33,794 bases of DNA from Pseudomonadota bacterium (lineage in GTDB: Bacteria > Pseudomonadota > Gammaproteobacteria > Pseudomonadales > Moraxellaceae): positions 1 through 33,794 of the forward strand of contig CAUJHL010000043.1 in the NCBI GenBank assembly GCA_963204705.1, given 5' to 3'. The number at the start of each line of letters is the position of its first letter. The first letter of the stretch is position 1. The notes under the pieces were generated by a model that saw only the letters and a list, made by a program, of their open reading frames with translations, did not search any database and was not told where the DNA came from. The position numbers were made by a program, and so were the translations under genes. Of the stretch, positions 4,707-14,874 are shown in pieces.

Positions 4707-5879
4707 TTACAGCGTCCGCGAAATCAGTTCTTTCATGATTTCATTGGTACCGGCGTAAATCCGGTGTGCGCGGTTATCGACGTAAGCACGGGCAACCGGA
4801 TATTCCATCATAAATCCGTAGCCGCCATGCAGTTGCACACATTCATCCACGATGCGGTTGACCATATCGGATAGCCAGTATTTGGCGGCACAGGCGGCTT
4901 CAACGGACAAGGTGCCTTTGACTTGTTCGGCCATGCATTTGTCAGCATAGGCACGGCCGATATCAATCTGGGTGCGAATTTCGGCCAGCTTGAAACGGGT
5001 GTTCTGAAACGCCCCAATGGGTTTGCCAAAGGCTTTGCGATCCTTGGTGTATTTGACGGTGTGGGCAAATACTGCTTCTGCTGCCGCCTGTGACATCAGA
5101 CCGACCATCAGGCGTTCCCAGGCCAGCTCTTTCATCAGCATGATAAAGCCCATGCCCGGCATGCCGAGTAGATTGGATTTTGGGACACGGACATTGTCAA
5201 AAAACAGCTCACAGGTGTCCTGTCCGTGCATACCGACCTTTTTCAAGGGCTTGCCTTTGCTAAAGCCCGGGCTCTTGGCATCCATGATCAACAGTGAAAT
5301 ATTGGCCGCGCCCTTGTCGCTGTTGCCGGTTTTTACTGCCACAACAGCCATGTCACACAGATAGCCATTGGTAATAAAGATTTTAGAGCCATTCACCACA
5401 TAGTCGTCTCCGTCCTCGACGGCGGTGGTGCGGATACTTTGCAGGTCAGAACCCGTACCCGGCTCAGTCATGGCAATCGCGCCCACGACTTCACCCGTGG
5501 CCATACGAGGGAGCCAGCTTTTTTTCTGCTCCTCATTGCCAAAATTCAGAATGTAATTGGCAACAATATCGGAATGCAGCGCAAAGCCAGAGGCGGAGTC
5601 CAGCGCATAGGCCTGTTCTTCCATCAAAATCGCGCTGTATAAGCGATCGACGCCACTACCGCCATATTCTTCAGGCATGGTCGCGCACAGTAATCCCAGC
5701 TCACCCGCTTTGTTCCACAAATGGCGGTCTATGTGCTGCTGTTCAGCAAAGCGTTCCTGATGCGGCCCCAGTTCAGTTTCAAAAAAACGGCGCGCGGTGT
5801 CCCGAAAGGCTTCATGCTCCGGGCCATACAAGGTACGCGGAATCATCGGGGGCAGAGGGCGTTCAAAACTGACGGACAT
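4707..5879 (-). CDS. Acyl-CoA dehydrogenase, LCAD/IVD-type active site
   Basis: The 390-residue FAD flavoenzyme has the length of the short/medium/long-chain acyl-CoA dehydrogenase family, which introduces the alpha-beta double bond in acyl-CoA and passes electrons to ETF. The FAD/substrate motif MTEPGTGSD is at 137-145 and the DRKAFGKPI segment at 280-288. The position that carries the catalytic Glu in MCAD-like enzymes is Ala here (YAGTNE, 375-380). The helix-G motif ELAWERL instead carries a Glu at 255, matching the LCAD and isovaleryl-CoA dehydrogenase arrangement. The C-terminus [15 protein letters not shown] closely recalls LCAD. Start ATG is the longest and fits the family. The gene is apparently monocistronic, ending at a strong shared terminator. 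Chain length or branched specificity cannot be decided here. Confidence 0.93.
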
Positions 5880-6221
5880 AGCGATTCTCAGCTGTTTTCA
5901 TTGCAGGAGCGGGTTAGGCCAGCCCGTGGCTGGCGGTGGTTGACCCTGAGTAAACGCGCTTTGGCCCTTGCCGACAATGAGCGGATTTGCCAAGTGAGTG
6001 CGTAAGCTGAGCGCTTCGGTCAATGATTGGCAAAAGTGCTCGCAGATAAGCGGGGCAGTGGTGGGTTTGCTCAGAATTTTGAGGGGCTGGCAAAATAGCG
6101 AGTCGGCTAAGCAGAATATTCGCTGAATATTGTCATTTTAGCTAAAACGGCTAAAATGGATGAAATAGCTGCTCTTTACTATTTTTCTGCATTCAGAATC
6201 TTTTACCACAAGGAGTTCATG
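5880..6221. other. Divergent intergenic region, acyl-CoA dehydrogenase / toxin-antitoxin
   Basis: The region carries no supported gene. Near the dehydrogenase start is a compact perfect hairpin, GCCAGCC-cgt-GGCTGGC (5918-5934), which would lie in that gene's 5' leader on the minus strand. Near the other end is the toxin-antitoxin promoter/operator, listed separately. Two AATATT copies (6115-6120 and 6126-6131) sit just upstream of that operator. Confidence 0.5.
6130..6158 (+). promoter_or_regulatory. Toxin-antitoxin promoter overlapped by operator palindromes
   Basis: A sigma-70-like pair TTGTCA (6130-6135) and TAAAAT (6152-6157) with a 16-base spacer lies 65 bases before the antitoxin start. 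The spacer and -10 are covered by a 12-base perfect palindrome TTTTAGCTAAAA (6136-6147) and by a 9-base inverted repeat CATTTTAGC (6134-6142) / GCTAAAATG (6150-6158). That gives three GCTAAAA-type half-sites. Autorepression by the antitoxin or the antitoxin-toxin complex is the inference, as is usual for type II modules. Confidence 0.65.
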
Positions 6222-11614: not shown

Positions 11615-12298
11615 ATGGGTATGCTGGATGGTTTGGTAGGAGAGCTGGCGCGCAATGCTTTGGGCAATGCGGTGGAGCGTAATGCGCCGGGTGGTCTCGG
11701 TGGTGTGCTGGGCGGTCTGATTCGTGGCTCACAGGCAGGCGCTGCGCCATCGTCAATGAATACCGGTGCTCAGGGTGGGCTGGGAGGGCTTGGCGGTTTA
11801 GGCGGAGTGCTGGGCTCTATCCTTGGTGGAGGTGCTGGTGCAGGGGGAGGTGGCGGCTTTCCGCAGGCGGCCCCTCAGCAAACGCCTACGTCGGGTGCCC
11901 AACAGGGTGGTCTTGGTGGCATGCTGGGTGGTAATAATCAATTGCTGATCATGCTACTACCTGTGCTGCTGGCCTGGATTCAGCAGCATGGCGGCATTAG
12001 TGCAGTACTGGGCAAACTGACCGGCGCCGGAATGGGCACTCAGGCCAATTCCTGGATCAGTCAAGGGGCGAACCAGCCGGTACCTGCAGATCAGGTCAGT
12101 GCACTGTTTAACCCTTCGGATATTGCCCAAATGGCAAACCAGTTTGGTGCAAGCCATGGTGAGGTGCAAAATGCCATTGCCACGCTGTTGCCTCAGGTCA
12201 TTAATTCCCTGACTCCGTCGGGTGATCTCAGTCAGGAATCTGCCGCCAATAGCGAAATTACTCAGGTCCTTCAGCAATTGCAGCAGACCTTCAATTAA
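11615..12298 (+). CDS. YidB/DUF937-family protein with Gly-rich N-terminal half
   Basis: A 227-residue protein. The C-terminal half aligns with the E. coli YidB pattern: a WIQQHGGISAVLGKLTGAGMG block (about residues 121-141), then a PVPADQVSALF segment, NQFGASHGEVQNAIATLLPQVINSLTPSGDL. The N-terminal half has MGMLDGLVGEL and then low-complexity Gly/Leu and Gly/Ala runs (about 26-36, 52-82 and 96-106). E. coli YidB is about 130 residues, so this version carries an extra flexible linker. The function of the family is unknown. The start is set by GGGAG 7 bases before the ATG at 11615. A strong intrinsic terminator follows. Confidence 0.85.
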   Translation: MGMLDGLVGELARNALGNAVERNAPGGLGGVLGGLIRGSQAGAAPSSMNTGAQGGLGGLGGLGGVLGSILGGGAGAGGGGGFPQAAPQQTPTSGAQQGGLGGMLGGNNQLLIMLLPVLLAWIQQHGGISAVLGKLTGAGMGTQANSWISQGANQPVPADQVSALFNPSDIAQMANQFGASHGEVQNAIATLLPQVINSLTPSGDLSQESAANSEITQVLQQLQQTFN

Positions 12299-12511: not shown

Positions 12512-13486
12512 ATGAAATCCGTACGACTCAAGGACACTATCAATACCAATACCCAGCAGTATCAACCCGCCAATCGCCGTGAACGCTGGCTATTGCTTGC
12601 ATTCAAAGCTCTGCTCACCACGAGTATTAAGCTGCCATCGCAGCTCCCATTTCGCTTGTCGCAATTACGTGCCGGGATGTTGGCCAGCAGTCGGCTGGTG
12701 GCAAAACTGGAGCCCAAAGGCCAAACGCCCTGGACACAAACAGAGTTTGCGGGGCTGAGCTGTGAGGTTCATGGTACCTGGCCCGAGCGTAATGCCGCAG
12801 GAGTGGTGTTGTACCTGCATGGCGGGGCATTTTTTGCGGGTTCGCCGGAAACGCATCGGGGATTGTGCGAACGCCTGAGTCAGTTGTCAGGGTACACCGT
12901 CATAGTCCCGGACTATCGGCTGGCACCGGAGCATCCCTTTCCTGCAGCCGTTGAAGATAGTTTGGCGGTGTATCAGGGGCTGTTAGCGGTGGGTTATGCT
13001 CCGGAAGCAATTCGGGTGGCCGGAGATTCTGCAGGAGGTGGACTAAGCCTATTGCTGGCCCAACACCTCAAGTCACACCAGTTGCCTTTGCCAAAAGCGC
13101 TGATGCTAGTGTCGCCGTGGGTGGATTTAAGCCTGACCTTGCCGACAGTTCGACACAACGCCCAGGCAGATCCCATGCTGACTCGTGATGCCTTGAACCG
13201 AGGAGGGGAGGCTTTTGCTGGCCCACTGTCACTGAATGATGCCCGAGTGTCTGCCTTGCGCGGCGATTTGGACGGATTACCACCAGTACTGATTCAGGTG
13301 GGCAGTGAGGAGATTTTGCTGGATGATTCGCGGCAACTGGCGCAGCGTCTAGGGCAAGCGCGGACGGAGGTTCGACTCGAAGTCTATCAGGGCTTTTGGC
13401 ATGATTTTCAGCTGTTTGCTCACTGGTTGCCCACCGCACGACTTGCCGTACAACGTCTGGCAGATTGGCAACGCGCCAAACCCTGA
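12512..13486 (+). CDS. Alpha/beta hydrolase, hormone-sensitive-lipase (HSL, family IV) esterase
   Basis: This 324-residue serine hydrolase has the HSL oxyanion motif HGG (103-105, in YLHGGAFFAG) and the nucleophile elbow GDSAGG with Ser173. The acid is probably Asp271 in the EEILLDD segment, and the base His297 in GFWHDF. The DYRLAPEHPFPAA block between them is also typical. Such enzymes hydrolyse short to medium acyl esters in the cytoplasm; the real substrate is unknown. A TTG start 60 bases upstream is possible, but the ATG at 12512 is chosen although neither has a good Shine-Dalgarno sequence. It stands alone between a terminator and the convergent ferritin-like gene. Confidence 0.9.
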   Translation: MKSVRLKDTINTNTQQYQPANRRERWLLLAFKALLTTSIKLPSQLPFRLSQLRAGMLASSRLVAKLEPKGQTPWTQTEFAGLSCEVHGTWPERNAAGVVLYLHGGAFFAGSPETHRGLCERLSQLSGYTVIVPDYRLAPEHPFPAAVEDSLAVYQGLLAVGYAPEAIRVAGDSAGGGLSLLLAQHLKSHQLPLPKALMLVSPWVDLSLTLPTVRHNAQADPMLTRDALNRGGEAFAGPLSLNDARVSALRGDLDGLPPVLIQVGSEEILLDDSRQLAQRLGQARTEVRLEVYQGFWHDFQLFAHWLPTARLAVQRLADWQRAKP

Positions 13487-13582: not shown

Positions 13583-14065
13583 CTAGCGGGATTTTTTACC
13601 CGTTTTACGGTCAGGTTTGGGCGTCGTCGCATCGGCAACGACATGGCTCAGGGTTTCGGATAAGGGCAATACCGCCGTACTGACTTTTTTCCCAGCTTTG
13701 CTCACCAGTGACTCGGCCTGCTGGGTCACTTTGTCCAGCAAACTGTCTGGTTCGGACTCGCCGTGTTCCGATTCTTCTTCGATGTCCAGAATGGATTTAT
13801 CGGTGAACAAATAGGTGCGCAAGTGCTTATCCAGCTTGGCATCTCGCCTACGAATCCATTCAAGTACCATGGCGGCGTGTTCTTTTTCTTCGTCCGCGTT
13901 GTGCTGCAGGATTTTGCGTAATTCACTGTCTTTACAGGTAGCAACCCGCTGATTGTACCAATCGACTGCTTCCAGCTCTTCCATCAGGGATTCGATGGCG
14001 CGGTGCATGTCGCGGGTTTCAGCGCTCAGTTCGTCGTGGGGTTCGTGATAGCCAGCGTGAGACAT
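13583..14065 (-). CDS. Encapsulated-ferritin (EncFtn) family protein with extended C-terminal tail
   Basis: Residues 12-92 of this 160-residue protein match the EncFtn pattern known from Rhodospirillum rubrum: MEELEAVDWYNQRV, NADEEKEHAAMVLEW and HLRTYLFT. The expected ferroxidase residues are present: E30, W36, Y37, E60 and H63. EncFtn forms an annular decamer that oxidises Fe(II) but needs an encapsulin shell to store it. Here a 68-residue tail follows: acidic (95-107), then a predicted amphipathic helical stretch, then a basic end DRKTGKKSR. The classical targeting motif of the LxxGSLRG type is not visible. No shell gene lies beside it; the neighbours are a convergent esterase and folE on the same strand. 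AAGGAG 7 bases upstream fixes the ATG at 14065. Confidence 0.85.
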   Translation of the reverse strand: MSHAGYHEPHDELSAETRDMHRAIESLMEELEAVDWYNQRVATCKDSELRKILQHNADEEKEHAAMVLEWIRRRDAKLDKHLRTYLFTDKSILDIEEESEHGESEPDSLLDKVTQQAESLVSKAGKKVSTAVLPLSETLSHVVADATTPKPDRKTGKKSR

Positions 14066-14165
14066 GGAAAGGCTCCTTGCAAGAAGTACATCGAGCATAG
14101 CCCAGCCAAGGGTAAAATGGGAAAGTCACCACAAAATCCACACAAAAACAGGTGCAGAAGTGTTT

Positions 14166-14729
14166 TCAGCGTGGAATCGGCAGAGCAGATAAAAACTCAC
14201 TACGAGCCTGCGCCTCAGAACTAAAATCCCCAAGCAACGAGACACTACGGGTGGTGGAGTGCTGTTTTTCGACACCGCGCATCATCATGCACATGTGCGC
14301 CGCATCAATCACCACGGCAGCACCGCGGGCACCCGTAGTATCCATGATGGCCTGGGCAATTTGCTGGGTCAGATTTTCCTGAATCTGCAGGCGACGGGCG
14401 TACATGTTGACGATACGGGCCAGTTTTGACAGACCAAGCACATGGCCCTGAGGTAAATAGGCAGCGTGAACGACGCCATGAAAAGGTAACAAGTGATGCT
14501 CACAGAGCGAGTAAAATTCAATGTTCTTCACCATCACCATTTCACGATTCGGTGAGGGAAAAATGGCATCGTTGACCACTTCGTCGAGAGTCTGCTGATA
14601 GCCCTGGGTCATAAACTGAAAGGCTTTTGCCGCACGGGTTGGGGTCGCCACCAGTCCGGGGCGTTCCAGCTTTTCGCCGATGCCGGTGATGAGTGCAGCG
14701 TAAGAGTCTTTCAGTGTGTCGAGTGACAT
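14166..14729 (-). CDS. folE: GTP cyclohydrolase I
   Basis: A 187-residue enzyme that converts GTP to 7,8-dihydroneopterin triphosphate, the first step of tetrahydrofolate synthesis. The zinc ligands are seen as C76 and H79 in [12 protein letters not shown] and C147 in HMCMMMRGV. The substrate-binding blocks [15 protein letters not shown] and QENLTQQIA are intact, which marks the type IA zinc enzyme (FolE, not FolE2). The ATG at 14729 has GGTGAG close upstream and gives a family-like N-terminus; a further ATG at 14744 lacks a ribosome binding site. It lies between the ferritin-like gene and the Smr gene on the same strand, with gaps of about 100-145 bases, so co-transcription is possible but not clear. 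Confidence 0.95.
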
Positions 14730-14874
14730 ACGGCTCACCCTCATTAAAAAGGCGATAGGGTAGAGTATCGGGGCGCGTCACTCAAGTAGTAAACGTAGTG
14801 ACTGGATTTTCGCGGACAGTGAGACTGCTTGTGCGACCTGCTGTTTAAGCAGAAGTGAATCGAATCGTTTCGGA

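What the first reader, a model, noticed from the sequence alone, without database searches (positions are those of the whole stretch)
13583..14065. Orphan encapsulated-ferritin protein with a 68-residue tail and no shell gene nearby
Seen: residues 12-92 carry the complete EncFtn pattern with E30, W36, Y37, E60 and H63. Known: EncFtn normally sits beside an encapsulin shell gene and carries a short C-terminal targeting motif. Here neither is visible: the neighbours are an esterase and folE, and the tail is acidic, then amphipathic, then basic. Inference: it either loads a shell encoded elsewhere through an unusual signal, or works without a shell, perhaps as a soluble ferroxidase or through a partner contacted by the tail.
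Basis: partly seen in the sequence, partly recalled or inferred. Interest (0 to 1): 0.65.

Follow-up and report, generated by a model that had tools for sequence, protein, structure and literature searches.

The report
Shell-less ferritin-like protein with extra tail
A small iron-oxidising protein usually said to need a protein shell is encoded here with no shell gene found in the genome; that turns out to be the normal state for a large, already named subgroup, and only its long, mostly disordered, genome-specific tail is unusual.

Summary
The gene is real, on the minus strand (14065..13583, 160 aa). It belongs to the short 'orphan' class (s-FLP; type protein NE0167, PDB 3k6c), not the shell-targeted class. 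No Linocin_M18 or SrpI-type encapsulin was found in its 99.5%-complete genome.

This is ordinary for the class. In 369 same-class genomes, 98 carry a full EncFtn. All 19 shell genomes carry one 19-167 bp from the shell; the other 79 have no shell. None of the 80 closest loci has a shell within the flanks held. A 2024 review already defines s-FLPs.

The tail is the unusual part. Most orphans end within about 15 residues of the domain; Moraxellaceae relatives end at 102. Residues 103-160 are found only in this genome among 349 family and 392 order genomes, have gene-like codon usage, are mostly predicted disordered and lack the published targeting motif.

Best reading: a shell-free decameric ferroxidase with a lineage-specific tail of unproven role.

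The parts
13583..14065 (-). EncFtn-like (s-FLP class) gene, 160 aa plus stop
13799..14050 (-). EncFtn-like domain with diiron ferroxidase residues E30, W36, Y37, E60, H63 (Rru E32, W38, Y39, E62, H65) and entry-site residues E29, E32
13586..13759 (-). Genome-specific C-terminal extension, residues 103-160: acidic linker, weak amphipathic helix about 110-123, then disordered with a Lys/Arg-rich end
13760..13792 (-). Residues 92-102 (ILDIEEESEH region), acidic extension shared with Moraxellaceae relatives that stop at residue 102
14166..14744 (-). Upstream same-strand neighbour folE (GTP cyclohydrolase I), not a conserved neighbour
12512..13486 (+). Convergent neighbour, Abhydrolase_3 esterase/lipase, not a conserved neighbour

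Best explanation
The gene encodes a member of the short, shell-independent EncFtn class (s-FLP). Shown: the domain, all ferroxidase ligands, the closest relation to NE0167 (3k6c), the absence of detectable encapsulin genes, and the absence of a shell gene as the rule for this class. Inferred from solved and assayed relatives: subunits pair to form the diiron centre and stack into an open decameric ring, which oxidises Fe2+ in the cytoplasm but cannot store it; the Fe3+ would pass to other sinks such as the one other ferritin-family (bacterioferritin-like) protein found in this genome. Inferred: the 58-residue tail is a lineage-specific extension, largely disordered, projecting from the ring, that is not a canonical shell-loading signal; it may tune solubility or contacts, but no function is shown.
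For: Domain and ligands. NE0167 is the top sequence hit (4e-36) and top structural hit (73% identity). Tree: the window falls inside the branch of short orphans and apart from the shell-adjacent proteins (quick tree; modest support). No shell in own genome, which is 99.46% complete: (the SrpI search was shown to work by 5 hits). Of 98 EncFtn genomes in a 369-genome class sample, 79 lack a shell; 20 EncFtn genes lie 19-167 bp from a shell and 83 do not; four genomes carry both a shell-adjacent and a separate orphan gene. Of 53 genomes carrying relatives of this gene, 50 lack a shell, and the 3 with one carry a separate EncFtn with a longer tail beside it. The NCBIfam encapsulin-associated profile matches positions 1-100 of 114 here but 1-114 in a shell-adjacent protein: the targeting end is missing. 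Isolated EncFtn oxidises iron but does not store it (PMC5012862; PMC11202242). Bacterioferritin-like protein.
Against: No biochemistry was found for this protein or for any s-FLP in the papers read. The review notes that s-FLPs could in principle be encapsulated without a targeting peptide. The genome is a 169-contig assembly, so a shell gene in the missing fraction cannot be fully excluded, and only two shell families were searched. AlphaFold modelled one monomer only; the oligomer was not tested.
Confidence: 0.72

Rival explanations
1. The protein is cargo of an unrecognised compartment (an encapsulin too divergent for the two families searched, or another cage), with the tail as a non-canonical loading signal.
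For: The protein scores just over the NCBIfam cut-off for encapsulin-associated ferritin-like protein (134 against 125 bits). The tail holds TAVLPL at residues 130-135, loosely like the targeting pattern. A tailed Thiothrix-type s-FLP genome (G218) carries an SrpI-type shell on another contig.
Against: No Linocin_M18 or SrpI hit in the genome. The published consensus L(F)X1V(I)X2X3L(I) is absent; a loosened pattern arises in 22% of shuffled tails, and the minimal LXI/L in 57%. TAVLPL is internal, 25 residues from the end. Most relatives without any tail also lack shells.
Confidence: 0.08
2. The basic end of the tail anchors the ferroxidase ring to DNA, membrane or polyphosphate, as Lys/Arg-rich tails do in some Dps proteins, so that iron is oxidised where it would do damage.
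For: The last 15 residues carry net charge +5; residues 109-126 form an amphipathic stretch (moment about 0.55). Thiothrix s-FLPs have an unrelated Ala/Lys/Pro tail. The Dps comparison is from general knowledge.
Against: The tail as a whole is net -3, was found in no other genome, and is mostly predicted at pLDDT below 50. No partner is known.
Confidence: 0.15
3. The tail is a functionless read-through or fusion relic: the stop at about residue 102 seen in relatives was lost and downstream sequence became coding. (Compatible with the best explanation for the domain; it concerns the tail only.)
For: Relatives stop at residue 102 after a matching EEESEH/EEESES; the tail has no homologue found.
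Against: Tail codon usage (0.746) is like that of the domain (0.720) and exceeds the 95th percentile of out-of-frame windows (0.645); third-position GC is also gene-like. So it has been coding for some time or came from coding DNA.
Confidence: 0.2

Closest known systems
s-FLP class of EncFtn, type protein NE0167 of Nitrosomonas europaea (PDB 3k6c)
   Same: Same domain, 73% identity in the fold search, same ferroxidase motif, no targeting peptide
   Different: NE0167 and most other orphans end near residue 95; this one continues for about 65 more residues
FLP-TP / EncFtn of Rhodospirillum rubrum (Rru_A0973) and Haliangium ochraceum
   Same: Same fold and diiron residues (about 57-66% identity)
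   Different: [quoted passage not shown] shell gene and motif are both missing here
Tailed s-FLPs of Thiothrix (L054, L066, L175)
   Same: s-FLP domain plus a C-terminal extension that is not a targeting peptide; no Linocin_M18 shell in the L054 and L066 genomes
   Different: Their tail is about 27 residues of mostly Ala/Lys/Pro and does not resemble this tail

Membership tests
EncFtn-like superfamily (PF22277) | Two-helix EncFtn domain above the curated cut-off | tested here: met
   142.9 bits against 27
EncFtn-like superfamily (PF22277) | Ferroxidase residues (Rru E32, W38, Y39, E62, H65) | tested here: met
   E30, W36, Y37, E60, H63
EncFtn-like superfamily (PF22277) | D5 decamer with ferroxidase activity | not testable with these tools
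   needs purified protein
s-FLP class (NE0167 type) | No C-terminal targeting peptide | tested here: met
   published consensus absent; profile match stops at 100 of 114
s-FLP class (NE0167 type) | Groups with short orphans rather than shell-adjacent EncFtn | tested here: met
   (quick tree, modest support); highest identity 82% to an orphan (L014)
s-FLP class (NE0167 type) | Short protein without a long disordered C-terminus | tested here: not met
   160 aa with a mostly disordered tail. Hence called a variant related to the class, not a plain member
Encapsulin cargo (FLP-TP) | Encapsulin shell gene, normally adjacent | tested here: not met
   none in window or genome
Encapsulin cargo (FLP-TP) | Targeting peptide L(F)X1V(I)X2X3L(I) | tested here: not met

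The most novel reading that the evidence does not exclude
A shell-free EncFtn ring has gained a tail that gives it a new cellular address (nucleoid, membrane or a specific partner), making a localised, cage-less ferroxidase.
Probability: 0.12. Interest if true: 0.6.

Novelty: new variant of a known kind. Interest (0 to 1): 0.33.

Why it matters
The name 'encapsulated ferritin', and database labels such as 'encapsulin-associated ferritin-like protein', mislead for this group: in the sampled class about four of five genomes with the protein have no shell of the searched type. What a ring that oxidises iron but cannot store it does in such cells is an open, testable question. This particular tail adds a single-genome curiosity.

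Tried and rejected
Encapsulin elsewhere in the genome: searched with two shell families, none. Homologues of the tail: Pfam, PDB, own genome, 349 family genomes (whole protein) and 392 order genomes, none. The apparent match of the tail in L083 (to residue 125) runs through stop codons and is taken as chance. tblastn extensions in L016 and L021 lie beyond the real stop codons. A conserved neighbour or operon: none; folE has a homologue in 1 of 80 loci and the esterase in none. Viral contigs: no relative. Plasmids: 7 records, none matching the tail. The careful tree did not finish; the quick tree was used. Papers on s-FLPs beyond the 2024 review: none found in the held library.

Full report
The gene runs 14065..13583 on the minus strand and encodes 160 residues. 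An AAGGAG site about 8 nt before the ATG at 14065 favours that start over the upstream ATG at 14098. Pfam EncFtn-like matches residues 6-89 at 2.6e-42 and NCBIfam TIGR04535 (encapsulin-associated ferritin-like protein) at 2e-39, 134 bits against a cut-off of 125. E30, W36, Y37, E60 and H63 correspond to Rru E32, W38, Y39, E62 and H65 and are invariant across 25 aligned relatives, as are the entry-site residues E29 and E32.

The protein belongs with a known class. Its best PDB match by sequence and by predicted fold is NE0167 of Nitrosomonas europaea, 3k6c. A 2024 review (PMC11202242) names this class s-FLP: short ferritin-like proteins without a long disordered C-terminus or apparent targeting peptide, first classed as non-encapsulated. 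In a quick tree of 182 rows the window sits among short orphans and apart from the shell-adjacent proteins; supports are modest because there are only 89 columns.

No shell was found in this genome. Linocin_M18 gives nothing in the 99.46%-complete, 2.40-Mb assembly, with control genomes ringing. SrpI gives nothing either; that search was shown to work by five hits among 229 class genomes. The caveats are that 169 contigs leave a small missing fraction and that only two shell families were searched.

This is the rule for the class. In a sample of 369 genomes of the taxonomic class, 98 have a full EncFtn domain (103 genes) and 19 have a Linocin_M18 shell. All 19 shell genomes have an EncFtn; 20 EncFtn genes lie 19-167 bp from a shell and 83 do not. 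Seventy-nine genomes have EncFtn and no shell, and four have both a shell-adjacent and a separate orphan gene. Among 53 genomes holding relatives of this gene, 3 have a shell, and each of those carries a distinct EncFtn with a longer tail beside it. With 13 shell proteins as queries, none of the 80 closest loci nor the window has a shell within the flanks held (up to 5 kb each side), while all ten control loci do. No neighbour is conserved: folE has a homologue in one locus and the esterase in none.

The two classes differ at the C-terminus. Most shell-adjacent proteins end in LGIGSL, LTVGSL or FTIGSL-type motifs. Orphans mostly stop at residues 94-104 with no motif; exceptions are Thiothrix (121-122, Ala/Lys/Pro tail), two distant Moraxellaceae relatives (109) and the window (160).

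The tail in detail. Only 6 of 349 family genomes carry the gene. The two closest family relatives stop at residue 102 after EEESEH or EEESES, so residues 103-160 are the genome-specific part. That part has no match in 392 order genomes, in Pfam, in the PDB, or elsewhere in its own genome. Its codon usage is gene-like (0.746, against an out-of-frame 95th percentile of 0.645), so it is not a fresh read-through of non-coding DNA. AlphaFold gives pLDDT near 97-98 for the core helices, about 52 for a helix at 110-123, and below 50 for 101-107 and 123-160. The published targeting consensus is absent; looser resemblances occur by chance in 22-57% of shuffled tails.

Mechanism. Isolated EncFtn oxidises iron as an open decamer but does not store it (PMC5012862). 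By inference this protein works as a soluble ferroxidase ring without a shell. The genome has one other ferritin-family protein, bacterioferritin-like, on contig 124, which is a plausible sink for the product; that step is inference. The tail's role is unknown; relic, solubility or local anchoring are all open.

Verdict. The orphan state is ordinary and already described. The tail makes this a variant of a known class seen in one genome.

Noticed in passing
L201 (G339:C227:5400-6550): A genome of the same class appears to encode an EncFtn domain and a Linocin_M18 shell in one open frame (EncFtn hit 5954-6205, shell hit 5531-5935, open frame 492 aa), an arrangement the review says is commonly archaeal.
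   Followed up: partly
L054, L066, L175: Thiothrix s-FLPs carry a tail of about 27 residues rich in Ala, Lys and Pro. The genome of L175 (G218) also has an SrpI-type (family 2) shell on another contig.
   Followed up: partly
G158, G339, G379, G390: Four genomes carry both a shell-adjacent EncFtn and a separate orphan EncFtn, suggesting two coexisting functional classes.
   Followed up: yes
L022: A Fretibacterium (Synergistota) MAG contig carries a proteobacterial-type s-FLP 77% identical to the query; horizontal transfer or binning error.
   Followed up: no
window 11615-12298 (+): A Gly-rich YidB-like protein lies near the esterase; ordinary but uncharacterised.
   Followed up: no
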